From the NCBI GenBank assembly GCA_000310025.1, contig FN649741.1:4911073-4963026 (forward strand): a stretch of 51,954 nt of DNA. The letters run 5' to 3'. Origin of the DNA: Ectocarpus siliculosus. Lineage: Eukaryota; Sar; Phaeophyceae; Ectocarpales; Ectocarpaceae. Every line of letters begins with the position of its first letter. Positions within the stretch are counted from its first letter, which is position 1. This document shows, one piece after another, positions 1-48,270 of the stretch. A program made the position numbers and the translations under genes. A model generated the notes under the pieces. It worked only from the letters and a program-made list of their open reading frames with translations, searched no databases and had not been told where the DNA came from.

Positions 1-3000
1 ACGAACTTGGCGGCACTGCCGCGCTCCTCCTGCACTTGGTGGACATGCCCATGATCACAAAAGAACCCGGCCGTTGAATGGCCTCGAGAACGGAAATCAA
101 ACTTTGGCGAAGGGGGCGATAGGCATCTCTGAGCATATATAGTAGAACGTTTAGCGGCACCCACATATCTAGGCTGGCAGCAACGCGAATACTTCTAGGG
201 CGAAACGTCCGACGTGGGCACGGCAAATGCGGCAATAAATGGATAGAAAAATACAACAGCGTACAACGTCACCACCCCTCCCCCCTCGGCTCCAGAGCAT
301 TGACTGGGCAAAGTGAGCGAAGACAACGGTACCAATCTGGGAAGGCACGCTCTTGGGGCAGGACACAAACAAAAGAGTGCAAAATGAAGACCTCTCGTTT
401 GTTCGGCATTCTCTCCACGTTGCCCACTCGACGAGAACAAAAAGTCCTCGTTGTATTTACTCCTGCGCATCCCCAGATCCGCTACGTTCGTACGACTGCG
501 GGGTGCATCATGTGAAACGGCCACAGCAGTACAAACGCCAAAAAAAGCAAAAAAAGCCGCCCTCTCTCACCTCTGTCAGCACCGCCACCAGCTGACGCAC
601 TGGCATCTCCTGCTCGGGACCCGCCTCGGCGAGCAAACCACACAGCGCGCTTCTGCTCTGCCCCAGCCTCGCAAGCGCGGCGTCAATCCTTCGGGCAAGG
701 TTCGCCCACGCCGTCGCCTCCGGGCCTAGCTCGTGACCCGGAACGGTCGCCGCCGCCGCCGCCGCCGCCCCCGCGACCGCCCCCGCCCCCGTGACCGCGC
801 CATCCCCGCCCGCGCCTGCTACTACTCCACGGACGTCTTCCCCGGGGCCTGTTGCCGCCGGTCTCCCCTTATCTCTGGACGACGGAGCATCGCCGCCTTG
901 GCGTTGCCGACTGGTCGGCGGCGAACCGGACGTGCCCACCACCACCTGCTCCACCCAGGCTCCGACGGGAGCGGCCAGAGTGCTAAACGACCAAGTGCTC
1001 GGTTCTTCTTCTTCACCTCCCCCGCCACCGCCCGCCGCCGTATCCTCGCCGATTGCTGACCTGGGCGTGGCCAGCCCGGGCTTCCGGTACTCTCGGGCAT
1101 CACTCCCGCCGCTAAACACCGCCTGCGTGATCGCGCCCGACATGGCCAGCGCCAGCGGGCACCCGCGGCACAGGTCCACCAGCCGGCCCCCCTCCTCACA
1201 CAGCGCCACCTCGCCCGCCGCCCTCGTCGCCAGCTGCCTGGCGACCTCCACGCCCAGCGGCTGCGCCATCGTCGCCTCCGCCCCGACCGCCTGCAGCAGA
1301 CCCTTCACCGGGCTGGTGACGAGCAGCTGGCAGCCCGACTTCCACAGGGCGTCCACCACCTCCCTCTCGTGCACGTCGTCCACCACCACCAGGCAGCGGA
1401 GACCGGCGAGCAGCGGCCCCCGGCACAGGTCCGCCACGTAGTTCACCGCCTGGTCCTGGTCCCGGAAACGCACCGGTTCTCGCAGGTTCGGGTCCGCCAG
1501 CGCGGCGCCCGGGTCGCCGCCGCCGCCGCCAGCGTCGCTGCCCCCGCCGCCGCTGCCCACGCTCCGCCTTAGCAACGCAGACGATGACGCCCCCCCCGCA
1601 TGCTCGCCGTCCGTCAGCCAGGCGTACACCGTGTCGGCGAGGCCCTGCAGGACCGAGACCAGGCGGTGGTTCGCCCCCTTCCCCGCGTGCAGCCAGAAGA
1701 CTCGGTCCCCGAACCGGCAGCGCACTGTGGCGTCCCGCACGACCGCCGCGGCGAGGACAGTCTTGCCTGACCCACTGGGCCCGCCGATCCCCGCGATCTC
1801 CAGCGGAAGGAAGGGGTGCAAGATGGTCGCCTCTATCTGCTCCGTGAGCTTCTCCCTGGGCACGTACGCCGGCGGGGGCGGGGGCACCCGCGGCAGGGGG
1901 AGCAGCTCGCCCGCTGCCACGAGCGTCGCCGAAAGAGCCCGCCTCAGCTCCCGGCCGAGCGCCGGGCCCTCCGCCCTCCGCACGCAGTTCCAGGCCGCGC
2001 TGTAGCCGCGGCTCGCCGGGCCCACGTCACTCGCGTGGGTCACGAGCTCCGCCAGCTCGGCGAACCGGGCGGGCTCGTGGAGCAACGTCAAGACGTCGGC
2101 GAGACGGTTCGGGGTGAGCTGGTCGAACTGCCCCTTCGCCCAGTAGGAAGGACAAGGCGGCAGCTTCAGGTCCATCGAGAAACTTCCCCGCCGCCCGGGC
2201 CTGCTGGAGCCACCGCCTCCTCCTGCCGACCCACCGGCGCCGGCGCCGGCGCCGGCGCCGCTGCTACCGCTGCGCTTGCCTCCCTCGCCCTCCTTCTCCG
2301 AGAGCTGGGCGATGGCCTTCTCTATCCTCGCGCAGGGCTCCTGCAGGTCGCCCCCTTCCCCGCCCGCGAGGATCTCTTCCCACGCCGTCGCCACCCCGAT
2401 GAGGGGCAGGGTGAAGCGCCGCACGACCGCGCTGGCCCTGTAGCGCTCCACGACGTCGATGAGCTGCAGGACGCTCGACTCTATCTTCCGAACCAGGTCC
2501 GTGGACTCCACGATGTCCTGCACCGTCCTCGAGATCAGCACCGCCCACGCCCGCGCGCACCTCCTGCAGACCTCGCCCAGCACCGGCCCGCACGCACGGA
2601 CGCACACGCTCGACACCGCCGCCTGGAAGCTGCGCAGCTTCTCGTAGACGCCGCCGAGGAGCATGGCCTTCGGCGCGCACGACGCCCCGAAGGAGGAGTT
2701 GATGTCCCACGTTGGCTCCAGCACCGCCCACAGCTCCTCAAAGCCCGAGGGCCCCTGGGCCGCTTCGTCCCGCGGGGCCCCGCCGCTCAGGTGCAGGCCG
2801 GACATGGCCGGGATCGCCCTCACCCCGGCGGTGGGCAGGTAGATCGAGGCCCTGGCCTCTCCCACCGCCCCGCCGGGCGGTGAGTCCGGAGACGTGCAAT
2901 CCGTGCCCCCGCTCCCTCGCCTGCCGTAGCTGGTGCCGCTCCCTCTGCTGCCGTAGCTGACCATGCTCCCCCGGCTGCCCCTGCTGCCGTTGAACGCCGT

Positions 3001-6000
3001 CCGCGCCGCCGCGGCCGCCGCCACCGTGGCCGGCGTGGGCGCGAAGGGCAGGCTGCCGCTGTCGCACGTCATGGTAGTCCCCGCCTCCGACGGCGCGGCG
3101 TACACGTCGGGAGACAGGGCGGGCTGGATGGTGAGCTTGCCGACAGACTTGTCCGAGTTCGGAGGGCCGAAGGAGTCGGTCCTGGAAGTGCCGAACGACT
3201 CCAGCCTGTCGACGGTCGTCATCATGCCCCCCGAGGCCTTCTCGCCCGCCGCGCCGCCCGTGCCCCCCCCCATGTCTTCGACCACGGAAGGGTGTCTCTC
3301 GTCTAAGAAGGGCAAGCTGCGGGAGGTGTGCGACGCGGCGGCGACGGTCTCGGGGCTCCGCCTCGAGACAAGCGTGGCGACACCAATTGCGGCGTCTTCT
3401 TCCGCTTGCCGGTGACGCCTGCCCGCCACCGTCTCTCGCTCCTGCGCCCCCCTCCCGGCCTTACTGACGGCCGACCGCCCCTCTTGCACACCTCGCGAGG
3501 CCGACGGGCCCGGGTGCGCCGGTGCGCCCGCGCTGCTCCTCCGCCCGCCCACCCCCACAACAACGTCCTCTTCCGAAAAGCTCGTAGAGCTCCTTACGTA
3601 CATGGGCCTATCAGTGTGGCGGGGGTGGTACGGCTCGTCAACCTCGAGGCTGTCCACCGACGAACTCCTGCTGAACCGTTGCTTCGCCGGGACCCCTCTT
3701 CGTTCCAACGCCCCGGCCCCTGCCCCGCGCGCCCCCCCGTTCCTAGGCACCGCTTCCGCCCTCCTCGGCGCCGCCGACACCTCTCGCCCGGACGATGACA
3801 GGGGCGGGGACTCGCTGCTGTCGTAGCTGCTGTCGCGATATATGGCCTCGAACCGCTTCTGCGCCTCCGCGGCTGTATCTGGGGGCGGCGGCGTCGCTTT
3901 CACCGCCGGGGGTCCCTGCTGCTGCTGCTGCTGCTGCTGCCGCTGCGATAGCGGCGGGTCCGCCGCTACAGGTCTTGCCAAGGGTGGTATATTTCGTTTG
4001 TCGACTATACGCGGTTCAAAGGCGGGGACGGCCCCCTTCGGTTTAGGCGCCGGCGCCAGCTCCGGCGGCGGCGGCGGCGATAGGACCGCGGCGGGGGTGG
4101 CGGGGGCGGTGGTGTTGCTGCTACGCGCGACCGTCCGCGAGAGCTCCGGCCGGCGCGAAAACGCGAAAGCTTCGTTCTGCAGCGCGCCGCCGCCGCCGCC
4201 GCCGGTGCCGGTGCCGGCCGGCGGCAGGGGCTGCGGGGGGTTTACCCGGCCTCGTCCGAGTGGCGGGCTTGCCCTCCCGTGTCTTTCTGGTGGGGACGAG
4301 TTCACCGGCCTAGACTTGCTACTGGCTCTGCTGGGCTGGGCAGGCGCCGGGTCTTGGAAAGCCGGCGCCGACTCCTTCGCGTCGGTGGCCAAGACCCCGC
4401 CGGGAGCGCTGGTCGGGCGACGGAGAGACTCCGCGGTCAGCCGGTCCTCCTTGCGGACGGCTAGCGGGCCGCTCGGGGAACCGTGACCGCCGCCATACAG
4501 CGTGGTGGTGTTGGTGGTGTTGGTGGTGGACGGATCGCTCGAGCTGCTTTTGTGCCGCAACCCCTCCGCCGAGACTCCCTCCCCCGCGTCCTCTTCCACG
4601 TCAGCCTTGCCCTCGATCGCGAGCCCGGTGTTCTTGAGGCGGGAAGCGGGCTGCGTCGCCGACTTCGACGCTGGCCCGGCGGCGGCGGCGGCGGCGGCGG
4701 CGGGGGAAGGGCCCCTCCTCTCGCTGGAATCCGAGAACCGGGCCCAAGTGGGGATCATCGAAGACGCCTTGCCGGCGCGCTTCGACTTGCGGACGTCGGT
4801 GGAGCCGAAGCCCACCATCCTCGACCTCATGATCGCGTCGGGGGACTCGGACGTACTCTTCGGCGACCGCTGTTGCGACCCGTCGAAGGACGACCCGGCC
4901 GGCCCGTCCCGCTCCTCGTCGCTCGAGGACGTCGACGCCCCGTCCACGTCAAGCAGCTCCGCCCCCAGGGTGTCGCTCACCGACCGCATCAGCATGCCCT
5001 CGCTGCGCCTGCCGGTCCTCCCTCTCATCCCGTTCGATCCCCCGGCCTCTCCCCGCACCCCGCCTCCGCTCCTCCTCATGTTCACCGGGTGGCCATTCGT
5101 GTTCCTGGCATCACCCGTCCCGGAGACACTGCGGGCACTCCGGGAGTGGTGCTCCAAAGCTCGCCGCGCCGACGCCGCGTTCTCGGAGGCCCGCACTCGG
5201 CCTCGCCCCCGCCCCCGCTCCCGCCCCAGCGCGACCCCCGCCCCACATCGACGGCCCGTCACCGCCAGGCGACAGGTGGTACATGTTTCTCGCGGCCAGG
5301 CCGGCGGCGGCGGCAGCGGAGGCGGAGGAGGCCGGGTCCCTGTCCACTCCGCCCACCTGCGCAGCGGTGACCGTCCCGCCCTGTTGCTGCTGCTGCCCGC
5401 CCCCCGACCCGTTCGGGAGCGCGGAGCCGGCCGGCCGGAAGAGCGCCACGAGGGCGGCGCACACTTCACGGGTTTCGACGGTCACGTAGAGGTTTCGGTT
5501 GCTGAACACGAAGACTAGGGTCCGCCCGGGACTCGCGGCCCTGCCTCCTTGGCCCCCAGGGACACTCGTTGCGGGCCCCACCTGAAAAGGATGATGGTGG
5601 TTCAAGTGTCGGTTGGCGCGAGGGAGGATGAGAGAGCGTCGACCGCAGGTAAGTAGAGTTGAGCGTTAGGTTCATGGGAAGTGCACCCAAGGCGGTGTCG
5701 AGGCAGAGAGGCACCACAGGAGGAGGAGGAGCAACACTGCTGATCTAAACACTCAACTTGCGCAGCATGCATGCATGCGGTGCAGTTGGCAAACAGGATG
5801 AAGTTTAGCCGCAGTTCCGTTATTTAGCTTGTGTGGGTGTTGGTGCTCCCAGTCCTCACGTGGATGTACATACACATACACACGCCAGGCCCAATGTGGT
5901 GTATCCCTCGCGACCGGCTGCTGTAGTGCCCACTACAGCAGTTGTAGGTACTTTCTACTCACGAGTGCTACACTGCTGCGTGTGTACACACAGACACTCA

Positions 6001-6603
6001 GAGAGGCGCCACTGCTCTCATTGACAATTCGACGGACTCGCAACGCATGTTCGTGTACACTTTTGTACCACACGGAAAGCAAATAAGTACACACACACAC
6101 GAGGGGCATGTGCAGCCTAAGGGCACCAACCAGCGTTGTGTTGAGTTTGAGTCATTGAAACCTCTGTGGCGGAAGGAAAGAAGACCGGCAGCAGCAGAGC
6201 GGAGGGACGAAGAGTTCTCTCGCCGATTTCAAGTCAAAAACTCATGGTCAAGCCGCGTGGCAATCAACAACAAATGGGCGTTGTGTGCCACGACTCATTA
6301 GACAGTTGCCAAACAACAAACAAGCGTTTTGTAGTGCAGCAGCTACATAATTCTCTCACGCACCTCTTCCAGGTTCCTCAGGTTGTACGTCCGAGTCTTC
6401 CGGTTGAAGTAGTACGCGTTCGTGCTCTGGCGGAAGACCTCCAGGGTCGAATCATCCGTGTCCAGGCGGAGCCGCCGCTGGTCGCTCTGGCCGCGGTTGT
6501 TGTGCTTCACGACCGGGATCCCGTCCCCGTTCTTGAGCACCGGGAGGATGTCATCCAGGCTCAGCACCAGCTCATCCCGCACCGGCGTGTTCCTCGCCGC
6601 CAT
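1..6603 (-). CDS. PH-domain / NB-ARC NTPase (NLR-like), 3' end beyond the window
   Basis: Proposed exons (minus): 6603-6364, 5581-5247, 5128-571, and possibly 29-1; about 1,711 codons to the donor at 570. Exons 1 and 2 join in phase 0 (LEE|VGPATS) and resemble a PLC-type PH fold: RRLRLDTDDSTLEVF, then RTLVFVFSNRNLYVTVET and a C-terminal helix (residues about 10-150). A long Ser/Gly/Pro-rich region with polyQ (about residue 585) follows, then a helical block (about 985-1140). The NB-ARC core shows a P-loop GGPSGSGKT (about 1,300; 1,750-1,795 nt), Walker B/kinase-2 CLVVVDDVHE (about 1,370-1,399 nt), an RNBS-B-like CQLLVTSP and a GLPL-like GCPLALAMSGA. In NB-ARC proteins this module is an ADP/ATP switch for intracellular sensing; repeats usually follow and would lie left of the window. 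Start uncertain: ATG 6603 is the first in-frame ATG of an open frame. The frame change near 5,130-5,245 needs a short intron. Confidence 0.72.
5918..5941. repeat. Short perfect palindrome in the first intron of the NB-ARC gene
   Basis: CTGCTGTAGTG and CACTACAGCAG are exact reverse complements separated by CC. They lie in the intron between the two PH-coding exons (6363-5582). The arms contain the CTGCTGTA core of a decamer that recurs elsewhere in the window. Function unknown. Confidence 0.7.
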
Positions 6604-10013: not shown

Positions 10014-12943
10014 TCAGAGCGGCGCCTGCTGCGGCGGGGCCGGGGTAAAGTGAACCACCGTGGCGCACACGTCGTCGTGCAGCATCCTCCTCGACGAGCC
10101 CCGCGGCAACGCCCGCAGGGCGGGCACCGACATGCCGTGGCTCTGCGCCGAGCGCGCGAGCACGAAGTCGACGAGAGCGTCGCTGGTGAAGGGCACCGCC
10201 CCGCCGCTGCCGCCGCCGCCGCCGCCGGCCGCCGTACGACTAGCGGCCGACCGCTGCCGGCGACCCATGGAGCCGCTCGCAGACGCTAACGCTCCCGACA
10301 CGCATTGCACCGCTTCTTCGTTGGACACCTGCTCCCACACGCCGTCGCTCGCGAGCACCAAGAAGCGGTCCTTCGACGTGAGCTCCACGACTGTCACCTC
10401 GGGTTCGGCGGTGATGTACGGGACCCCCTCCTGGGAAGAAGCGCGAATTGATAGCCACCGTAACGATATGGGTCTTACTTACATGGGGGTGAGGGGATGG
10501 GGGCGTGGGGCGTGTACTCGTGCTGCTTCGCAAGGGACAAGAGTATGTCTGCCAAGCACGTGACGGGTACACGATGCGGTGCTGGCAACGGCCTTCGCAG
10601 CCATACCCACCGCCACAAAAACACCACAACAAACGGCAGCATCGCACACACCTTGTAAGGGCTGAAGCTGAACACTGCCCTCTTGAGGTACGCGTCCCCT
10701 ATCGCCCTGGTGACCGCGAGCGACCCCGCCACCCGCTTGATCGCCCGCGCGCCCTTCCACTCGTCGTTGCGGCTCGCGCGGATGGCGTTGTCATCTCCGC
10801 TGCGCGCCCGCACAAGCGCAACCTCGTCCGCGTCATCGCAGTTGTGATCCCGGGATAGAGCGATGGCCTTCAGCTCGCTGTCAGCGGCGCCGGCGGCCCG
10901 AAGCGGGGACCCCACACGCCTCGGCCCTGCCGTCGCCGTCGCCGTCGCCGCCCCCCCCCCCCCCTTGGAACACCTACCCCTGCCAGCCGCAGGCCCCCCG
11001 TCTCCCCCCTTGCCGCCGCTAGCACCGCGTTTTCCTCCTGCCGCTCCCACCCGCCCCTTCCCCGAACTACTCGGGGGCGAGGGCGACGGCGTGTTCTTAG
11101 CCGTGGACAGCAAGTCGGGGGGAAACCGAGCGGCGTCCGTGGTTCCCAGAACGACTCGGCAGTCCCCGACGTGAGCCAGGAAGAGCTGGGAGCGGACCAG
11201 GAGGGCGAGCACGACGCAGCAGCCGGCATTGATGTAGCCCCGGTTCTTCGTCGGATCGAGCTGGGCGATGAACTGCTCGTCGCAAGAGGTGAACGCGTCA
11301 GCTAACGACACCCGGATCTCTGCCTCGCGGCCGGCCCGGTCGTCGTCGCCACCACCGGCATCGCTCCCGCCTCGCCCCCGCGCCGTCGCCGGGGCTGCTG
11401 CCGCTTCTATCGACTCGACTCGCGTCAGGACGTCGGCCGCGAGGTTGTCGCACACGAACTGCGCGGCGCGGCTGCCGCCGTGGCCGTCGCACACGCAGTA
11501 GACCTTGATGCCGAGAGCGTCATGGGAGAGCTCCGCGTGGCGGTCCTCGGTAGGGTTGTTCGCCTCGTACACGCTCGTGTGGTGCCACGGGATGACCCCG
11601 CCCGGGCTGTTGAACGGAGCAGCAGCGGCAGCAGAGGGCTTGTTCGATGTCGGCGGTGGTTGTGCTGCCGCCGCCGCTTGAGCCGCAGCCGCTTGAGTCG
11701 CCGCCGCCGCCGCCGCCGCCGCGGACGGCGAGGCCCTGCCCTTCGTCTCGTCGAAACTCTTGCCCGTTACGCCACCCCTCGCCTCCCCGTTACCACTTCC
11801 GCAAGAAACCGGCCGCCGATCTGGATTTGGCGAGTCGGCGCTGCTGCAGCTGCTGGCGCGATCCCTGTCCAACTCTGGGTCCTGCACCGGCGGGCACGAC
11901 ATCCCGCCTACCGCACGTCCGGGGCTCCCGGTCCCGTGGGTTTCCCCGCCGCTGTGCGACGGCATCAGACACGCGTCCTCCTCAGGAAGGCCGCGCGACA
12001 TGAAAATGGGCTGACGGCCGATCTTGGCCTTCCACTCAATCGGTGCCACCGCCCTCATGCCGACGCCGCTACTGGCGCCTCTGCCGTTGCTACCGCCGCC
12101 GCCGCCGCCGCCACCGCTTGCGCCGCCGCTGCCGCCGCCGCTGCCGCCGCGGTCACCGTGCGTTTCCGCGTCTTTTGTGTCGTGCCGCTCGGTTTCCTCC
12201 TCTTCCTCCTCTCCGGCGCTGCCGGCCGCCTCGGCGCTGCCGCTGGCCTCGCTGTTGGCAAGAGACCCGCTTTGCTCCCTCCCTTCGTCCAGAGCAGCGC
12301 CGCTTCGCGGGCAGCTGATTTCCCTAATGCCCGTCCCTATCCTTCTTCGCTTCGGTGACGCCAGCGTCGACGCGCTAACCTTTGACCCCCCACCATCCCG
12401 ACGGGAAGCTGCCTGCTGGCTCCCCCTGTTGGAGCTGCTCTCGCCGTCGGCCTCCAAGCAGGTCTCTGGGCTCGAGGGTCTGGAACCCGCACGCCCATCG
12501 CCCCCGCCGCCGCCATGTTGCGCAGCGGGTCCTCGGCTTCGCCCCCGCCCCCGGCGGCCGCTTCTTCCCCGGCTGCGGCGGAACACCTCCCTTTCCGACA
12601 TCTCGTGCTCGTCGCTCTCGCGGCCTCCTCCCCCGCCGCCGCCGCCGCCGCCGCTACCCCCGCCGTAGAGGTGCACCGGCTCGTGGTCGGTGCTGCGCTC
12701 GGAGTCCGCGGCGTAGTCTCCTTCCTCCTCGCTAAATATCGCTCCCCCTATCAGCTGGCGCCACCCCCGCCCACCCACGCCGTCCCCGCTCCGGCTGCCA
12801 ACACCCGCTGTTCTCTCGCCCTCGCTCAGCGCCCCGCCCCCGAACCTCTCCCCCTCTGCGGGCCGGCCGCCGTCGCCGGGCTCCGCAACCCCTTCCCCCG
12901 CCGACACCTCGTCCGACGCGGGTATCATGCTGTCCTCCTCCAT
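10014..12943 (-). CDS. PP2C-type protein serine/threonine phosphatase with long disordered N-terminus
   Basis: Two exons: 12943-10652 and 10430-10014, with a 221-nt intron joined in phase 0 ([17 protein letters not shown]); about 902 residues. Residues 1 to about 440 are Gly/Ser/Ala/Glu-rich low complexity. The catalytic PP2C domain follows with its motifs in order: EDRHAE (about 468), [11 protein letters not shown] (about 486), [66 protein letters not shown] (about 790) and [12 protein letters not shown] (about 880). The acidic residues that bind the two metal ions in PP2C (ED, DG, SD, DD) are all present, so activity is expected. Low-complexity insertions interrupt the domain after AARFPPDL and before the last motif. 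Start taken as ATG 12943; the frame stays open upstream without another ATG, so a 5' exon is possible. The substrate cannot be inferred. Confidence 0.88.
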
Positions 12944-13775
12944 CGGCTCGGGAGCCGAAGCCACAGCCGGCGCAACGGGCGCAACAACAGTGGGGGGGGC
13001 AGCCGAGGTGGCGGTGGCCGTGGCGGCAGCGGCGGCGGCACCGCCGACACTTGTCGTCGGCCGGAAACTCCCGATCGCGTCTACATTGTTTTGGCCGGTG
13101 GGCGCGTCCCTGCTGCGTCTCCGCTTTCTCGCGCGGGTGTCCTGCCCGACATCGTCGCCGGGCGCCGGTGCTCCGCCGTCCGCGCAACCTCCCGCTGCAC
13201 CGACAGCCCCGCTCGCCCCGCCTCCCCCGCCGCCGCCGTCGTCAACTCCGGCGGCGCCGCTGCTCCCCGCGACTTTGCTTCCCCCGCGGCTTGCCGATTG
13301 TGCTGGTCCGCCTGGCCGACTCCCTCCGCTGCTGATCGGGCAAAGCGTAAGGGGGGGCCAGCACCCGCGTTGGTGGGAATAGGAATGGGCGGCAAATCAA
13401 ATTGTGATACACTACACGGCAGCGAAATGCCGCAGGGATAGAGGACACCCCCAACCGACCTCAAGAGGGTGTGAGCGGCGCATGCGGGGGGGCAGTAGAC
13501 TAGCGCGCCCTGAAGCTGCCTCCGATTTGAACGAAATAAAGGCCCGGAGAAGGCGAGAGTGCGTCGAAACTCCGATTGATGCTTGTAGCCATCGATGAGG
13601 CCCATTTCAACGACATGGTTGTCTAGTCCCGTGTTCACATCTACCAGAGGTCTGTTCCCAAATGTTGCATCCACACAACTCCGAACATGGACCAGCAACA
13701 TAACTGTAAGTCACCAGGTCAGCGTTTGAGCAGGAACTACGCGCTTAGAAGGAAACATACAAAAAACACAAAGCC

Positions 13776-37699: not shown

Positions 37700-40600
37700 A
37701 TGCTTCGTCTGGGCCAGTCCACTTCGAGGGTGACTCGGGGGGTGGCTGCTGCCTGTCGCAGCAATGCATTGCTGCCGTGTTCAGCAGGTCAGCAGCAACA
37801 TGGCGTGTCGATGCTCAGAGCGTTGGCCGCTGCTGAGTACTCCAAGGTCAACATCTCTGAACACAACAAGACCTGCACCACCTCTAGTGGTGAACAGCGG
37901 AGCAGGGCTTACGCCAGCAGGAGGAGACTGATCACATGGCCCGCTGCGCATCTACCGGGTGCGGTGTTTGGTGGTGCAACTTCAAAGCGACTCATGTCCA
38001 CCGCGGCTGGAACTGGGCACAGTGGAGACGTTGCGACGACCGCAGACCTTGGCCCTGATGCGATGGCGGGCGGTGCGGATGCCGCGATGGCTGCGGCCGG
38101 CACTGCAGACCAGGTGCGACACGGTTTTGCCTTCTCCCGTAACTTCATTGAGTAACTTCGAAACCTGCAACACATGAACACGTAAGGCTGCAAGGACGCA
38201 GGGCAGTCTCTCAAGTCCGTTCCTTGACTACCGTTGGTGACACAAGATACCACACCCCCTGGACCGATTTTCAAAGCTCGGTTATTCCACAGCCGAAAGA
38301 GTGGCGGCGCGGAAAATGGCGGCATTGCACCCGTGTCATCGACATCTTTCCGAAAACGGATCATTTGATAATGGCACCCTCTTCGTCGTGGAACTCTTCG
38401 TCGTGGAAGTCTATGTAGCGTTGACAATCGGTCCAGGGGGTGTGTTATCTTGTGTCACCTACGGTATTTACTGCGATTTGCTGTACCGCTATACAGGTAT
38501 GGTAGACAGCAAAAAAGGTTAGCTTCCCCCCACAGCAGTCTACACGTTCGCAAAAAAGCAGCTTCCCTCCACAGCACCCTGTACGTTCGATGTCCGGCTA
38601 AAGAGCAGTAGGAGACTCTGCTGGTGAGCCAGAGAACATGCGACGATGTACATAGGCTGTCCATTCCCAGCAACGGATGGTGTGTCTGACGTCTGACGTT
38701 CATTGGCATATCATGGATGTTCACGACCACCCAGGCAAGAGGCGAAGACAAGCTTACAACAGTTGTGCCTGGGGCCCCCCAAGGTTATCAATGGCAACGG
38801 GAGGGTTGAACTCCGAGCATATACTACTGCTGTACCACACACAATACCACAAGCGTGTACAGTAGTCCATCGTCGGACGTAACGATTTTTTGTCAATATG
38901 CTAGGGATCCCTCCGGTAGTGGGCTTATGAGAGCCGCTCCTGTCATCAAAGGGGAGAAGATGCAAATTGCAGAGTACGGAGTAGGAAGCAGGACCAGCCC
39001 ATTGCAGGTGGCTGTCAGCTCCCAGTTTTGACGTTTCCCAAGCTCAGCAGTTCACACAGCTGGCGTGCTTTGACTCGAAGAGCCCAGCGAACCTTGACGA
39101 ACTACACGACAAAATTTACAAACCTGTGTACTTTTTGAGTGTACTGTATTGATGTTGTACACTTTGCAACGTGGGACACATCTACTGTGCTGTGGTCTTA
39201 TTCCAAGTTGGTATTGATGACTGCTGAAAGCGTGCTCCTCGAAGGAGACTCTAGGTTGGTCGTGATCCCCAGGTTGGTATGCGCGTTGTCGTACTAAATA
39301 TGAGAGCCGTGACATGTGATGTGTAGATATTCGATTTGATTCGCCGGGTTGGAGGAAGGAAGATAGGGAGTGCCCCCGAGCTGGCCAGCGGGGGATCCAT
39401 ACATTGCCCTCCGGGAGAACTACCCCTCGGACTCCTATACTGTACGAAGAAAATGTGGAACCGCAGCATTTTGCCCACCAAACTGACTGCGTGACGTACG
39501 CAATCACACGAACACCAATAGGATCGAAATAACATCCATGGAATTCAATGAAAATGGGGACGAGCCCATCCAGGAACGTTGCTACTTTCATTCTCCATTT
39601 GCAACCCTCGCGTCTCTAAACAAAACTTACCTATCGCACGTATTGTGTGGGACCAATACTATCGATGCAGGCCCAGGCCGCGTTGGAGGTTGCACCGGAG
39701 ACCTTCAAGATGGCCCTCTACACGCCCCCTCAGGTGGCAATGATGGCGGTGGATTATGTTCACGCGACCACGGGAATGCCTTACTGGATGACCATCGTAG
39801 CCATCACCGTGGGGATCAGGACAGCGATCCTGCCGATCGGACTTCTCGCTGCTAGGAATGGGGCGAGGACGGCGGCGATGAAACCGGAAATGGATGAACT
39901 CCAAGCGGCCATCAAGGTGACACACCGTTTTTTTTATCCTCGCCGCATGGCAAACGGGAATGCGTTCTCGTTTGCCATCCAATTTCAAGGTCTTGGCCCC
40001 AATGTAACTCTGTTTGTTCCCTCTAGCGAGTTCTCCACATGGTCCGTGCTCCTACCGTTTCTGGATCGTTCTATTCGATGCAGATGCGATAGGTGCATTT
40101 ATCTTTTGACCCAGCGAGCCAGGCGCATAACGCGGGCGTCGCCGTTGGCCTTCTTGGGCCTCTCTCTCACTGAGAAAGGAATCCCGGCCTTCAATGTTTT
40201 TCGCGGCGCCCAGTGGTTATGTCGCGTCTTGTTCGATTTCGCACCCGGCATACTACATTTCAGAAATCGATTTAATCATGTGTACGCCACACACCAAAAA
40301 TCATGGTCGATGAGGAGTAGGAACGCTGGACCCTTTTTCTCGGGATAGAAATGAAGACAAGCACCGGAAGGTGGAGAAACACATACCAGGTATTTGGTAA
40401 ACTACAGCAGTGTGACCCCGGCTGACGCGCCCAGAACAATTACCAAAATATGTAAAATTGACGTTCAGCATAAATGGGACGACACATGCATGCGACACAT
40501 TGACCGGCTCGCCCTGTGCGTGTGTGCGTGTGTGCCGCCTTTACCTCTCCTGGTGCATCAATTGGCGGAGCAGGGAGATCAGCAGTCGTCCCAACCAAGG

Positions 40601-41953
40601 AAAGCAGACCGCTATCGGCAGGAGACGAAGGCCCTGTTCCAGAAGCACAAGGCTAGTCTCGTGATGAACGCGGCGCTGCCCATCGTCCAGCTGCCCCTCT
40701 TCATTGGCTTCTTCCTTGGGCTTCGGAGAATGCCGGATGTGGTCCCTGAGTTTGCCACTGGCGGGGTTTTGTGGTTTCAGGTGCGTGCGCGCGAAGTTGC
40801 ACCTCGGCTTTGACGTGATGTCCACAAGTCCGTTAACCCCCACCGCAGCCCCCCCCCCCTTGTCCGTCGTGTACATATGGTTCAGATGCCTCGCGTGTTC
40901 TGTAGTTTCCATTTCTGGTCATGGAGCTGCAACGAATACCCCTCTTTTCCCATGCGTGCAGGACCTCGGTGCGCCCGACCCGTACATGATTTTCCCGGTC
41001 ATGACCGGGGTGATGATGATGGCGATGGCAGAACTTGGTGGCGAGGGGGGCGCTTTGGCCGGCAGTTCGGTCAAGATGAAGGCGGGCATGCGTGGGATGG
41101 CGTTGCTGGTCACACCGTTGACCATGTACGTGTCGACGGGCGTGTTTGTGTACTGGACGACGTCCAACTTTTACTCCATCCTGCAGACTCTGGCCTTCAA
41201 GGTGCGAGGTGGCAAGCTTGTATCGTAGCGGAAAGGGACAAGAGAGAGAGGATACGCCGGCTGAATGGATACTGTTTGCAGACCTCCACTAGAAAACAGG
41301 CCCGCCGCGCGCTGTTTCTATTCAAAGCATCATCATCCTCCGTCGCACGTGTCGATCCCCTCTTTGCATCAGCCGTTCGCCGTAACGAAACCAGTATGGT
41401 GCGGGTCATCAACGTAGTCCCACGTCGCTTCGCAGCAACCGAATCAAGGAGCACTCGATGCACGAAACAGCCCCACCTTCGTCTCCTCCTCTCGCGTACC
41501 CCTCTTTACCCTTCGCCGGTCCTGGAGCAGTCATCTGGAATCAAGAAGTTCTTCGACTTCCCCGACCTTCCACCCAACAAGCTGAAGAGCAACACGGCCG
41601 AGAAGGAAATCGGCTGGTTGGACGTCCTCGGCGGTGATCACCCCATCAAGGAATACAGAAAAATGCAAGATCAGCGGGAAGTGCAGGCCTGGTTCGTGGA
41701 AGGGGAGGGGGGGTGGACCCGCAAAGCGCACAACGCTGAACAGGGAGAAGGCGGCAACGTCGCACGCGAGGGGGCGCCATTTCACGCGCCGCCCTCGATG
41801 GCGGGCCCTGTGTCCGGAAAGGCGAAAACGCCGTCGTTTGCTTCTTCTGCCGCTGCGGGCACACCGAAAGTAGTTTTGCGGTCAGTGCGACCAAAGCCCG
41901 CGGGGGATAGGGGTAAAACTGCGGCACGAGGGCCGAGAAAAAACAGGGGCTAA
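37700..41953 (+). CDS. OXA1: Mitochondrial Oxa1-type membrane protein insertase, complete, five exons
   Basis: YidC/Oxa1/Alb3 family: inserts proteins, including mitochondrially made subunits, into the inner membrane from the matrix. Exons: 37700-38113, 39671-39916, 40574-40780 (or from 40571), 40962-41201, 41531-41953; all phase 0, about 509 residues. The N-terminus MLRLGQSTSRVTRGVAAACR is Arg-rich without acidic residues, as in a mitochondrial presequence, and there is no plastid bipartite signal. The insertase core has segments YWMTIVAITVGIRTAILPIG, KASLVMNAALPIVQLPLFIG, YMIFPVMTGVMMMAMAEL and LLVTPLTMYVSTGVFVYWTT, with the TSNFYSILQTLAFK end typical of the last helix. A basic C-terminal tail (RSVRPKPAG to the stop) fits ribosome binding in the matrix. 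Intron 1 contains a MITE-like element. Confidence 0.92.
38229..38466. mobile_element. MITE-like element with 40-bp terminal inverted repeats in OXA1 intron 1
   Basis: Positions 38,229-38,268 (starting TACCGTTGGTGACACAAGAT) and 38,427-38,466 are reverse complements with only about two differences in 40 bases, and weaker pairing continues about 12 bases inward. The 238-bp unit has no coding capacity. This size and structure fit a miniature inverted-repeat transposable element. I could not identify a clear target-site duplication, so the superfamily stays open. Confidence 0.8.
38521..38589 (+). repeat. 30-bp direct repeat in OXA1 intron 1
   Basis: AGCTTCCCCCCACAGCAG at 38,521 and AGCTTCCCTCCACAGCAC at 38,560 each continue to a shared ACGTTCG, with four or five differences. 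It lies about 55 bases right of the MITE-like element. Confidence 0.7.
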
Positions 41954-42815: not shown

Positions 42816-43583
42816 CTACGAACGTCCAAATGATGTCTTCGAACCTAGGCGGTCGGTGATTCGCCGCGTGTCAGAGCTGCTGGTGTTGGATGGCCGGGCA
42901 TTTTCCCTCGTTTCTACGACTTTCCTGAAGCTGCTGTCGCCGTTACTACCAGTGGCGTCGCGGCTGGTCGATTTCCCGCCGTATCCAATTTTAACGCGGC
43001 CGTTGACCTCCGCCGGCTTAACCGAGGCACTCGCCTCCTTCCGCGAAGTGGCAGAAGGCCGAGGACAGCGGAGGGCACCGAGGGGATCGTCGGTGGCGCC
43101 GCGATCTTTGTCATCGGCAAGTTTACCGCGGCCACTACCACCACCGGATTCCTTGATCGCCTCAATGAGCTCTACGGAGCGGCTGTCTCCTCTCCCGTGC
43201 CGGGGTTTGGTGTGGTATCCCTCCTGCTGCAGCTTGGGCTTTGTGTAGTATCCCCGCTGTTCTGGTCTCGGCATAGTGTTGTATCCCTGCTGCTCCGGTT
43301 TGGGTCTAGTGTTGTATCCCTGCTGCTCCGGTCTGGGTTTAGTGTGGTATCCCTGCTGTTCCGGCCTGGGTTTAGTGTAGCTTCCCTGCGGCTCCGGTCT
43401 GGGGTTAGCGTGACGTCCCTGGTTTGGATGGTATTCCTGGTCATGCTCGTGTTTGTTGTGATTTCCCTTGGATTCCTGCCATCGACGGGGCGGGCCCTGG
43501 TTCGGAGGCGTTGGTTCCGCCTGTGCACGGAAAGCTCTCCCACCACTGTGCGGCCTTCCTTGCAAGCGCCCGCCGCGGGTCAC
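42816..43583 (-). CDS. Exon of an unknown protein with six 11-residue repeats
   Basis: The frame runs from a good acceptor (CTTGCCGCAG|GTGACC, exon start 43,583) to a stop at 42,818-42,816, 255 codons. Residues about 57-125 contain six tandem units of the pattern GYHTKPRPEQQ: GSYTKPRPEQQ, GYHTKPRPEQQ, GYNTRPKPEQQ, GYNTMPRPEQR, GYYTKPKLQQE and GYHTKPRHGRG. The rest is charged and Ser-rich (KKDRG/RKEAS-like, ending KTSFGRS). In the other frames the same DNA gives hydrophobic Val/Leu/Ser repeats; the hydrophilic minus frame with its splice acceptor is the better choice. No start codon is in this exon and I could not place the upstream exon, so it may be partial or a pseudogene. Confidence 0.5.
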   Translation of the reverse strand: MTRGGRLQGRPHSGGRAFRAQAEPTPPNQGPPRRWQESKGNHNKHEHDQEYHPNQGRHANPRPEPQGSYTKPRPEQQGYHTKPRPEQQGYNTRPKPEQQGYNTMPRPEQRGYYTKPKLQQEGYHTKPRHGRGDSRSVELIEAIKESGGGSGRGKLADDKDRGATDDPLGALRCPRPSATSRKEASASVKPAEVNGRVKIGYGGKSTSRDATGSNGDSSFRKVVETRENARPSNTSSSDTRRITDRLGSKTSFGRS

Positions 43584-44497: not shown

Positions 44498-46303
44498 TCA
44501 GGTGGTCTTGGGTACCCTCCGTCTCACCTTGAGAATATTTCCATCTAACTTCTGGCCATCCATGCACTCGACCGCCTTCTCCATGCCCCGTTCGTTGTCG
44601 AAGCTGATGAAGGCGAAGCCGGAGCTTGCTGTGACCACAGCGGCCTTGGTCACCTCCTCTTTGGAGCCTTTCCGTTTGCTTGTTTCTTCCGCGCTGCAGC
44701 TGACTTTGTTGAAAATCACCTTGAATCCGTTGACATCGCCGAAGGCCGCAAAACGCTTGGCGAGCGTGGTAAATGTCGTTGAGAATGATAGCCCCCCAAC
44801 GTGCACGTAGAAACCACCCGTCGCTTGGTGCTGGTTTTCCCAAGGACTGCTGTTGAAGTCCTTGCGATCCCAAGTAGAGGAGCCCTGCTTGGGTAAGGAC
44901 TTCGATGAATCAAGGTCGTTGTCCCTCGCTCTGCTGCTGCTGCGGCGGGTGCGGCTGCCGCTTCGCGAGTCTCTCTGTTTATCCTTGTGCGATCTTCTGC
45001 TGCTATCCTCACGCTTCCTGTCTCGATCATCACCCTGCGGCCCTCCTTTGCTTTCTTCTCGAGTCCTCGTCTTGCCCTTGCGCTCGTCTGCGCGCTTCCC
45101 GACGGAGCCATGCCTGTCACCGCTGCTGTCGCGGCGCGTCTTCTTGCTCCTTGGCCGATGGTCGCCATCATTTTCGTCCTTTCGACTGCTTGGTTCTCGC
45201 TTCTTGCGCTCGTCGGTCTCTTCTCCCATGGAACGGCCGCCGCTGCGCGCCTTCTTGCTCTTTCTTGGGCCTTCGTGCCCCGGGGTGGGATCGACGCCTG
45301 ACCAGTCTTGCTTGCCCTGCTTCCGCGCCTCTTCTCGAGCCATCTCTCGTTCCGCCACAAGAAGCGCCGCTGCTTTGACAACTTCTTTCTCGAAGTCCTC
45401 TCCCTTGATAGATATTGGCGGCGGCATTGTGTACTCCGCGTCATCCGTCCAGGCGGCCGCGCGCCCGGGAAGCGGCACGCCATGAGATGCACTATTGGGC
45501 GGAGGAGGCCTGCGCATGGCCCCAGAGGGTACGTCGTCATCGCCGTACCCGTCATCGTTGCTGCGCGGTGGGACGCCAACGGAGCTCCCGGAAGCCCTAC
45601 GAGGCATCATGGCTCGGCCCCGAGGCCCGCGCAGTTGACCACCGTCATCGTAAGCAGAATTTCCATGGGCAACTTGAGAATCCGCGTCGTCGTACCATTC
45701 TGACGGTTGCGGACCGGTGGGACGACGGAACGACGGAGGAGGCTGCTGGCGCATCGGCGCTCGTTGCGCGGCCGGGAATTGGTTCCTATCGGGGCGCTCC
45801 CATGCAGCAGACTCGTCTGCTTCGCCGTGCCCGTGTCGCTGGTCCTGCCACTGCCGCTCCGCATAGTGGGCAGAACCACCTTCACCTCCGTACCTCGGAG
45901 CTACGGGAGCATTGGCCCCGCTCTGCTGTGGCTTCGGACGCCCGGATTGCCACGATTGGTGCTGTTGCTGTTGCCGCTGGTTGTGAGAGTAACCATCACC
46001 GTAAGTGTCCTGAGGCGGTGGCGGAGCGCGCTTACCCACCTGCAGCCCTTGCTGTGGGGGCGGGGGGCGCTCCCAACGCGCGTCCTCATGGCTATTGGCG
46101 TTGTGCCCCACTGCTGGGGGGTACCTTCTTCCGTTCTTGTCGTGGTTGGGGTCAGCATGCCTGTGATCCATTTCGCTGTGATAAGCGGCGCGGGCTGGCC
46201 CTGGGCCTGCAGTCGCGGTGACGCTGGCAGCGCTCGTAGGCGGGGGAGCACCCTGCGGGAGTGGCGGCGCGGAAGAGCCTGTGGGATCGCATGTTTGGAT
46301 CAC
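44498..46303 (-). CDS. RS-rich protein with a C-terminal RRM (RNA-binding, splicing-type)
   Basis: A single long exon. The first in-frame ATG is at 46,171 (557 residues), and the frame stays open to 46,303 where an acceptor (CCCACAG|GCTCTTCC) suggests an upstream exon. The N-terminal half is Pro/Gln/Gly/Asp-rich and disordered. The middle is Arg/Ser/Lys/Asp-rich with RS dipeptides (SRSGSRTRRSSSRARD), as in SR and SR-like splicing factors. A helix EDFEKEVVKAAALLVAERE lies between. The last 100 residues are an RRM: RNP2 FYVHVGGLSF, an insert KRKGSKEEVTKAAV, RNP1 GFAFISFDNERG and the final strand ILKVRR. Ending six residues after the RRM (RRVPKTT) is natural. Likely nuclear, in pre-mRNA processing (inference). 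Confidence 0.8.
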   Translation of the reverse strand: MIQTCDPTGSSAPPLPQGAPPPTSAASVTATAGPGPARAAYHSEMDHRHADPNHDKNGRRYPPAVGHNANSHEDARWERPPPPQQGLQVGKRAPPPPQDTYGDGYSHNQRQQQQHQSWQSGRPKPQQSGANAPVAPRYGGEGGSAHYAERQWQDQRHGHGEADESAAWERPDRNQFPAAQRAPMRQQPPPSFRRPTGPQPSEWYDDADSQVAHGNSAYDDGGQLRGPRGRAMMPRRASGSSVGVPPRSNDDGYGDDDVPSGAMRRPPPPNSASHGVPLPGRAAAWTDDAEYTMPPPISIKGEDFEKEVVKAAALLVAEREMAREEARKQGKQDWSGVDPTPGHEGPRKSKKARSGGRSMGEETDERKKREPSSRKDENDGDHRPRSKKTRRDSSGDRHGSVGKRADERKGKTRTREESKGGPQGDDRDRKREDSSRRSHKDKQRDSRSGSRTRRSSSRARDNDLDSSKSLPKQGSSTWDRKDFNSSPWENQHQATGGFYVHVGGLSFSTTFTTLAKRFAAFGDVNGFKVIFNKVSCSAEETSKRKGSKEEVTKAAVVTASSGFAFISFDNERGMEKAVECMDGQKLDGNILKVRRRVPKTT

Positions 46304-48270
46304 GCAGGCGATCGGGGCAGCGCGGGGAGGGTTACACGTTTGTCAAAAACTCACACAAACAAGCCACACTGAAGAGGGACGGATCTTCGTGGAAGGGTGT
46401 TCATCAGCCAGCGACAAAACAGGGTGCAGCATCATGCGACGGTACCTGGTAAAGAAGAGGTTCGACTGGCACATCGGAGGGATATCGTGTCCACACGATA
46501 CTTGATTACCGTTTGCGATGGTGTCTATCTGACTTGTAGCGCTTTTTGGGTTTCAAAACAATGTCCAATGTGTGGTATACAGGGTCGGGAGCTGACGCAT
46601 ACCGTACCCCGGGTGAAAATCGCCGGGTCGTTTGGGACTTGATAAAGCAAGAACCAGTATGCTGTGCAGGGAGAGAGTGAAAAGGAGGTTACGATAAACA
46701 ACATTGTCGTGTGCCCACGGGTGCTCCCCCAACTGATTTTCTCTCTACTTCGAATACAATTTCCTGTTTTTTTGGGAAATGATCAGCTCTTGTGACGCGA
46801 AGCTACGGGGAACCGATGTGGTGCGTTTGGCACAGACAGACAGATACGTGGCGAGTGGCCCCCGCAGCGACATTTGTTGCTGCAAAGCAGTCAGTGTGGG
46901 AGGTTGTCTGAATGACGAACGAACTGGGTAATGTGGGCGTTTTTTTTTGTAAAACCAAAAAACGTAAAAATGCGGTGGGTTGGCCGAGGGAAAAAATGAA
47001 GTGAGTTAGATCTCTATAGACTATTGAAGAGAATAACAACTCCTCCTGTAGACTTCGTCAACACATGTGGCTTCCGATGACATAAATAAGTCCTTCGCAC
47101 TTGATTTCCTCCCTTGTACGACTCCCCGCTGCAGGTCCCAGCATACTGCTGCTGCTGTACACCCCGCATGTTGCTCGCCATAGGACACGCAACAGACAAC
47201 AGACATGGTTCACCTCTTTCAGCTGTGACCTGCACTGACACGTACGTAAGGGTGCATGGCTGCTCTACAGGAGCAGCAGCAGTGAGGGGGGGGTTGTGTG
47301 GTTACAATAGTGTGCTTTTAATGTTCTGTATTTGCTGCTGCAGCTGCCGTGTCGCTATTACTAGTTTAGAGTGTGTTTCTGCTTGCTGCTGCTGTGTGCT
47401 ACGAGCAGAAAGAGAATAGCAGCAGGGCATATGTGTTGCCTATACAGCGGTGTGTGGGACAGAGCAGTGTAGGACGCACAGTGCATCGTTGTCTGTGATC
47501 CCGAACGAACCACGAACATAAAATTGGGGCGGCGGGGCAATAATTTTTTTACTGCCCAATAAATCACTCGAGGTTCGTTTGACTTTCTTTGTAAAATCTT
47601 GACTTTGTGCCTCTGGCTTGGATGAAGGCTACGATAAACAACTATGCAATTATCGGCAGAACATGAGCATCATATGTGGTACTTTTTGGAAGAACTGTTA
47701 CTATTCCGCCTACATGCGATATGAATGGCGCGAGAAAAAATCTTCGCAATAGGTCGCCTATTGGTCCTCAATCGTTTCAGGTGTCGGTTGACGAGCCCTC
47801 GCCAGGGGAGACGCTGTTGCTACCCACCGCCACAAACACGCGGGAGTCTGGAGTTGAAAAATTGGTTCGTTTTCATGTGGCTTTGGTGTACTGCATCTGA
47901 AGGATTGTCCAATTTCGGTATATTGTAGAGGTCCCGCGAATGATGGTCACAGCTGGGAAAACGTAGTTAGACGTCTTGCATAGGAACCTTCCGGAGCCCC
48001 TATGGTTTGCCTTTACCTCACCAATGTATAACCTCGACACTATTGTGGAACAGCACATGATGGTGTCGAACCGCATTTGACTATTTTAGCTGTAAAAAAT
48101 ACAGTAAACCTTTGGGTGGGGTGGGGAAACGTCAATGGTAGTGAAGCAAGATCGACGCCTTCTCATATCCACTTAAGTAGCACGAAGCAAACGTGTCCCA
48201 TGAGTTGCCACGGACCGGGGACGAGAACCATGATCCCTAGCACTGCCAAATTTGCTGCCGAGTTATGGTG
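46304..48270. other. Non-coding region upstream of the RS-rich RRM gene
   Basis: No gene found. Contains CTG-rich patches near 47,144 and 47,330-47,400, and a short repeated phrase TACGATAAACAAC at about 46,690 and 47,631. Probably holds the promoter and any 5' exon of the gene ending at 46,303. Confidence 0.45.

What the first reader, a model, noticed from the sequence alone, without database searches (positions are those of the whole stretch)
571..6603. PH-like domain fused to an NB-ARC NTPase in an algal NLR-like protein
Two exons that splice in phase give a PLC-type PH fold (RRLRLDTDDSTLEVF ... TLVFVFSNRNLYVTVET), and the following exon carries a complete NB-ARC signature (P-loop, kinase-2, RNBS-B-like, GLPL-like). 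NB-ARC proteins with TPR repeats are known from brown algae, but a PH-type N-terminus is not an architecture I know. It would point to phosphoinositide or membrane sensing by an immune-like switch. A helical block just before the NB-ARC could be the signalling module.
Basis: partly seen in the sequence, partly recalled or inferred. Interest (0 to 1): 0.8.

Follow-up and report, generated by a model that had tools for sequence, protein, structure and literature searches.

The report
Unusual algal NLR-like switch protein gene
This looks like one gene for a very large immune-receptor-like switch protein with an odd front end that may be a membrane-binding domain, but that front domain could not be proven and the switch part lacks one normally conserved residue.

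Summary
Codon usage supports exon 1 strongly and exon 2 weakly to moderately; the favoured frame changes across the 118-nt second intron. Exon 3 encodes a real NB-ARC domain (PF00931, E 7e-11) with P-loop, kinase-2 and a GLPL-like motif. The signature is not complete: RNBS-B reads TSP where all 14 relatives that cover it, of 21 aligned, read T/S-T-R. The PH claim is unproven: no Pfam PH family, nothing but itself in the genome, no relative in two collections. A PLC/PRAF profile gives 3.6 bits (7 of 2000 shuffles as good; true members 14-42 bits) and ranks exon 1 first of 847 ORFs, but profiles without the recalled PRAF sequence rank it 10th to 60th. An ~860-aa low-complexity linker and a helical block precede the NB-ARC. 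The 3' part is unreadable, so TPR or LRR repeats are untested. In passing: a profile of helical N-termini of five other NB-ARC genes here hits only MLKL's four-helix bundle below E 0.01 in the PDB.

The parts
6364..6603 (-). exon 1, start ATG at 6603-6601; residues 1-80; N-terminal half of the putative PH-like module
   Evidence: ORF and splice sites; codon score +0.77, 0 of 1964 stop-free frames elsewhere in the window as high; isolated single-sequence model: helix 16-24, strands 43-48, 53-59, 62-67, 72-77, mean pLDDT 51
5582..6363 (-). intron 1 (782 nt, GTGCGT...TTTTCAG)
   Evidence: splice borders; no consistently favoured open frame
5247..5581 (-). exon 2; C-terminal half of the putative PH-like module (RTLVFVFSNRNLYVTVETREVCAALVALF, 5524-5438), then low-complexity tail
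   Evidence: frame and splice sites; codon score +0.24 over the exon
5129..5246 (-). intron 2 (118 nt, GTGGGG...CCGCAG); exact borders uncertain
   Evidence: favoured frame changes here; without splicing exon 2's frame ends at TGA 5113-5111
571..5128 (-). exon 3: most of the linker, helical block, NB-ARC; donor GTGAGAG at 570
   Evidence: open frame and splice sites
2746..5128 (-). exon 3 share of the Ala/Ser/Gly/Pro-rich linker, presumably disordered (857 aa in all, beginning in exon 2)
   Evidence: composition A 13.9, S 13.3, G 12.8, P 10.0 percent; disorder itself was not predicted
2293..2745 (-). helix-rich block before the NB-ARC
   Evidence: single-sequence AlphaFold2 of 2766-2250, helices only, mean pLDDT 54; no Pfam family over its cut-off; best other match in the genome E 0.49
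1141..1866 (-). NB-ARC domain up to GLPL: P-loop 1785-1759, kinase-2 1392-1369, RNBS-B-like LLVTSPV 1326-1306, GLPL-like CPLALAM 1161-1141
   Evidence: PF00931 E 7e-11; motif alignment with 21 relatives; coordinates

Best explanation
A single gene encodes a STAND/NLR-like protein: a small N-terminal beta module, possibly a divergent PH domain of the PLC/PRAF type, an ~860-aa low-complexity tether, a helical block, then an NB-ARC switch; the 3' part is outside readable sequence. Most likely working: the N-terminal module holds or recruits the protein to a membrane or a partner through a long flexible tether; the NB-ARC domain binds nucleotide through an intact P-loop and kinase-2 motif and drives oligomerisation when released; the helical block is the adaptor or effector that oligomerisation brings together. 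Shown: reading frames and splice sites by sequence and codon usage, the NB-ARC homology, the missing RNBS-B arginine. Inferred: that the exons lie on one transcript, the PH fold, disorder of the linker, membrane binding, oligomerisation, role of the helical block. Because the RNBS-B arginine is absent, nucleotide sensing may differ from that of the other NB-ARC genes of this genome.
For: In-phase exons; coding-frame scans; PF00931 E 7e-11; 28 further matches in the genome, all within residues 312-573 of the 760-aa query, the NB-ARC part; a profile of five NB-ARCs of this genome, the window's included, finds Apaf-1 at E 3.6e-25 and also DARK, CED-4 and plant NLRs in the PDB (a result of the profile, not of the window sequence alone). 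For PH: PLC/PRAF profile 3.6 bits, 7 of 2000 shuffles as good (6 of 2000 with PLC beta added); pairwise with a recalled plant PRAF PH 2 of 2000; exon 1's ORF first of 847 ORFs with the first profile, second with the other; isolated exon 1 model helix then four strands.
Against: No Pfam PH family. True PLC/PRAF PH domains left out of the profile score 42.5, 38.6, 39.4 and 14.2 bits with 0 of 1000 shuffles as good, against 3.6 for the query. Pairwise with PLC delta, gamma and beta 441, 881 and 1228 of 2000 shuffles are as good. PLC-only, own-genome and combined PH profiles: 164, 180 and 134 of 2000 shuffles as good, and exon 1's ORF ranks 10th, 60th and 55th of 847. hhalign probability 0.2 and the wrong region aligned. 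The exon 2 half scores below zero, ranks 312th or worse where it was scored and gives 270 of 2000 against PRAF. The Trp of the last helix, invariant in the three PH domains of A1, is absent. PRAF was chosen after the query was read. No transcript, no ortholog, no C-terminus.
Confidence: 0.42

Rival explanations
1. One NB-ARC gene, but the N-terminal module is not a PH domain: another small beta domain or a lineage-specific sequence, acting as a protein-protein docking module.
For: No PH family hit; PH scores far below those of true members and dependent on one recalled sequence; no relative found in the genome or in two collections.
Against: The order of predicted elements and the L..G / K / RL..D.STL / NL..LEEV spacing fit PLC/PRAF PH domains, and with the PRAF-containing profiles exon 1's ORF ranks first or second of 847.
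Confidence: 0.45
2. Two genes: exons 1-2 form a short protein ending at TGA 5113-5111, and the NB-ARC gene starts downstream.
For: Exon 2's frame can run on to TGA 5113-5111; intron 2 is short and its acceptor (TCCCGGAGTGCCCGCAG) has a poor pyrimidine tract; no RNA data; the codon signal near the junction is small.
Against: Coding signal leaves exon 2's frame before that stop and exon 3's frame is favoured from about 5127 on; the first ATG of the exon 3 frame after that stop lies only tens of bases downstream, leaving little room for an ordinary terminator and promoter.
Confidence: 0.12
3. The NB-ARC is a degenerate switch: nucleotide may bind, but without the RNBS-B arginine the protein is a scaffold, regulator or decoy and not an ATP-gated oligomer. 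Not exclusive of the others.
For: RNBS-B TSP against T/S-T-R in 14 of 14 relatives that cover it (7 of 21 do not); kinase-2 DDVH where 14 of 16 covering relatives have W in the last place; long branch in the tree. Several of the relatives are close paralogs, so the counts are not independent.
Against: P-loop and both kinase-2 acidic residues intact; long open frame kept; the downstream motifs (MHD) are not readable.
Confidence: 0.35

Closest known systems
[quoted passage not shown] known here only from passages of PMC11378527 and PMC12879055)
   Same: NB-ARC homologous to that of some two dozen loci of the same genome
   Different: 25-42 percent identical pieces at best (31-42), long branch, no TTR arginine, about 1280 residues in front of the NB-ARC, TPR part unseen; membership in the TPR class not shown, nor is the organism
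Apaf-1 / CED-4 / plant NLR NB-ARC ATPases
   Same: P-loop, kinase-2, GLPL-like motif; a profile that contains the window domain finds them
   Different: RNBS-B arginine missing; effector and sensor parts unlike theirs or unseen
PLC/PRAF-type PH domains (Pfam PF16457 PH_12)
   Same: Order and spacing of likely elements in exon 1
   Different: No hit to PF16457, no Trp in the last helix, scores far below true members
MLKL/HeLo-like four-helix bundles
   Same: Helix-rich block in front of an NTPase, as in several NB-ARC paralogs here
   Different: The window block does not match that profile convincingly: 11 of 500, 50 of 200 and 39 of 1000 shuffles as good, and its reversed sequence scores higher by hhalign

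Membership tests
NB-ARC (PF00931) | profile match over the curated cut-off | tested here: met
   42.3 bits against cut-off 23.5, E 7e-11
NB-ARC (PF00931) | P-loop and kinase-2 motifs | tested here: met
   GGPSGSGKT and LVVVDDVH, aligned with relatives
NB-ARC (PF00931) | RNBS-B / TTR arginine | tested here: not met
   TSP; 14 of 14 relatives with coverage have T/S-T-R, 7 of 21 lack coverage
NB-ARC (PF00931) | GLPL motif | tested here: inconclusive
   CPLALAM at 1161-1141 looks GLPL-like; the aligned relatives do not cover the motif
NB-ARC (PF00931) | MHD motif in ARC2 | not testable with these tools
   lies beyond the readable sequence
NLR | C-terminal sensor repeats (LRR, TPR, WD40, ANK) | not testable with these tools
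   sequence left of the window reads N; no convincing next exon in 1-570
PH domain | match to a PH family profile | tested here: not met
   no PH family for the joined exons at E up to 10 (HMMER's filters drop most matches above about 0.1), while PLCD1, PLCG1 and the recalled PRAF PH hit PF16457 at 7.4e-11, 3.9e-7 and 2.1e-9
PH domain | seven-strand barrel capped by a helix | tested here: inconclusive
MLKL/HeLo four-helix bundle (for the window's block) | profile similarity | tested here: inconclusive
   2.4 bits, 11 of 500 shuffles as good; hhalign 50 of 200, reversed sequence higher; half-profile with MLKL 39 of 1000

The most novel reading that the evidence does not exclude
A PH-type lipid-binding module tethered by ~860 low-complexity residues to an NB-ARC switch that lacks the RNBS-B arginine: a membrane-anchored NLR-like protein whose activation is gated by lipid or location instead of by the usual ATP contact, in a genome whose other NB-ARC genes carry MLKL-like killer helices.
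Probability: 0.13. Interest if true: 0.75.

Novelty: new variant of a known kind. Interest (0 to 1): 0.42.

Why it matters
If the organism is a brown alga (inferred), its lineage evolved multicellularity and immune-like receptors independently of plants and animals. A receptor-like switch that reads membrane lipids through a PH domain was not met in the papers searched here: searches returned no paper, nine (eight seen as listing only, one, PMC9585183, in passages: a 15-residue piece of a plant resistance gene analogue modelled on a PH-like template at 28 percent confidence), and PMC9815663, PMC4986451 and PMC12258605 contain neither 'pleckstrin' nor 'PH domain'. The missing RNBS-B arginine makes the gene a natural test of how much of the NB-ARC cycle is needed.

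Tried and rejected
PH by Pfam, PDB sequence search, PLC-only and own-genome PH profiles, hhalign: all negative or not significant. PF16457 in the whole genome: nothing, but the control rang nowhere either. A recalled PRAF PH in the genome: one weak place only, E 0.117, with a stop inside. Relatives of the NB-ARC region in viral contigs and of exons 1-2 in viral and prokaryote contigs: none. Foldseek of both low-confidence models: no match with E at or below 0.001, matches not interpreted. Pfam for the helical blocks: nothing over a cut-off. A second group of three paralog N-termini (A4) found nothing meaningful in the PDB, best E 0.084. The neighbour gene's N-terminal exon does not match the MLKL half-profile, 223 of 1000 shuffles as good. 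Next exon in 1-570: many weak acceptors, none convincing. A first attempt at the NB-ARC alignment caught no relatives and was redone. A first look at P-loop frames in 14 loci used too strict a pattern and was redone.

Full report
The observation. They join at GT-AG sites, in phase, into 1711 residues without a stop. A codon-usage score trained only on the NB-ARC end of exon 3 was slid along the strand. Exon 1's frame is favoured over 6600-6361, exon 2's frame over about 5520-5250, neither over about 5250-5130, and exon 3's frame from about 5127 on. Exon 1 scores higher than all 1964 stop-free 240-nt frames sampled elsewhere in the window; exon 2's first 240 nt are matched by 173 of 1964. Against this: windows inside intron 1 reach +0.42 in one frame, with one stop each, so exon 2's values (up to +0.49) are not far above noise. 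Exon 1 is very probably coding, exon 2 probably, and intron 2 fits the data, though its exact borders are not fixed. There is no transcript evidence.

The NB-ARC. Pfam gives PF00931 at E 7e-11. The search of the whole genome with the 760-residue end of exon 3 lists 29 matches: the gene itself and 28 others, all within residues 312-573, the NB-ARC part; some are two parts of one gene. The PF00931 search lists 27 matches, a lower bound, and does not list the window gene, which may reflect its divergence or the tool's loose first look. I aligned 21 fetched loci with the window domain. P-loop, RNBS-A and kinase-2 align well. RNBS-B does not: the window reads TSP, while 14 of 14 relatives that reach this motif read T/S-T-R; the other 7 of 21 do not reach it, and several of the 14 are close paralogs. 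That this arginine contacts nucleotide in related ATPases is recalled; the review passages I saw (PMC10586772) name a different ZAR1 arginine. The window gene sits on a long branch. A profile of five NB-ARCs, the window's included, finds Apaf-1, plant NLRs, DARK and CED-4 in the PDB.

The PH claim. The joined exons match no PH family in Pfam and nothing relevant in the PDB by sequence. Profiles from three PLC PH domains, from seven PH domains of the same genome (of 17 matches), and from both give -0.5, 0.4 and 0.2 bits; 164, 180 and 134 of 2000 shuffles do as well. These tests are weak: the seven genome PH domains themselves score only -0.5 to 5.8 bits against the PLC profile. A profile of PLC delta, PLC gamma and a plant PRAF PH domain gives 3.6 bits, with 7 of 2000 shuffles as good (6 of 2000 with PLC beta added); pairwise against PRAF 2 of 2000, but against PLC delta, gamma and beta 441, 881 and 1228 of 2000. 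Members of that set, each left out in turn, score 14.2 to 42.5 bits with 0 of 1000 shuffles as good, far above the query. Among 847 ORFs of the window exon 1's ORF ranks first (3.5 bits, runner-up 3.1) and second (4.2 against 4.8) with the two PRAF-containing profiles, but 10th, 55th and 60th with the PLC-only, combined and own-genome profiles; exon 2's ORF ranks 312th or worse where it is scored. The PRAF letters are recalled and were picked after I had read the query, so the best figures flatter the case. AlphaFold2 on exon 1 alone, without an alignment, gives a helix and four strands at mean pLDDT 51, compatible with the first half of a PLC-like PH but also with other folds; Foldseek found nothing significant. 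I put the PH fold at about 0.4, lowered from about even.

The middle. Some 857 residues rich in Ala, Ser, Gly and Pro lead to a helix-rich block. The block has no Pfam match over a cut-off, no significant paralog (best other E 0.49), and an all-helical low-confidence model.

Relatives. In 10 of the 21 loci (L002-L007, L030, L032, L037, L040) the NB-ARC exon also carries an N-terminal stretch that looks helix-rich by eye; L002, L004 and L031 show, by eye, a hydrophobic membrane-spanning-like segment before the NB-ARC. A profile of five of these blocks (L006, L030, L037, L040, L032) has six distinct sequences below E 0.01 in the PDB, all MLKL, the best at E 0.0015 over 77 gapless columns; the next hit is at 0.16. 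Six single blocks gave nothing over a cut-off in Pfam (L006, L037, L032, L002, L004, L003; best E 0.0037, CHAD, for L002). The other three-block profile found nothing meaningful. HeLo/MLKL-type bundles are known as N-termini of fungal NLRs and plant CNLs (PMC10197012, passages). For brown algae I found no such report: of the 100 papers ten were listed, and the two that held all three terms cite brown algal NB-ARC genes in the passages I saw without naming such a domain. The two main papers on these receptors are not held, so this may be in print. The window's own block is not convincingly of this kind: 11 of 500 shuffles, 50 of 200 with the reversed sequence scoring higher, 39 of 1000.

Limits. 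The sequence left of the window reads N in the held genome, so ARC2, MHD and any TPR, LRR or WD40 repeats cannot be seen. The collections on hand offered no other eukaryotic genome. Literature: searches returned no paper; one search returned nine, eight read as listing only and one (PMC9585183) in passages, where a 15-residue piece of a plant resistance gene analogue was modelled on a PH-like template at low confidence.

Verdict. A real NB-ARC gene, probably one transcript with an unusual, very long N-terminus, and a missing RNBS-B arginine; the PH reading is plausible and open.

Noticed in passing
L006, L030, L037, L040, L032 (L005 and L007 look alike by eye); NB-ARC loci of the same genome: N-terminal blocks of NB-ARC genes: a five-sequence profile has only MLKL four-helix-bundle chains (six distinct sequences, best E 0.0015) below E 0.01 in the PDB, which suggests a killer-type effector domain on these receptors.
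   Followed up: partly
L002, L004, L031: By eye, a hydrophobic transmembrane-like segment lies before the NB-ARC; in L002 and L004 it follows the helix-rich block.
   Followed up: no
L012 and L008: A neighbouring NB-ARC-like gene on the opposite strand, tail to tail with the window gene, with its own helix-rich N-terminal exon.
   Followed up: partly
window 10020-13396 (-): Protein phosphatase 2C gene (PF00481, E 2.6e-18 and 1.8e-12 on two frames).
   Followed up: no
window 39620-41225 (+): Two frames resembling the Oxa1/YidC membrane insertase family (PF02096, E 3.5e-4 and 1.5e-7, both below the curated cut-off).
   Followed up: no
window 44501-46342 (-): 614-residue frame with an RNA recognition motif (PF00076, E 2.4e-11).
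   Followed up: no
window 43203-43421: 33-bp tandem repeat, 6.6 copies, within an open frame on the minus strand.
   Followed up: no
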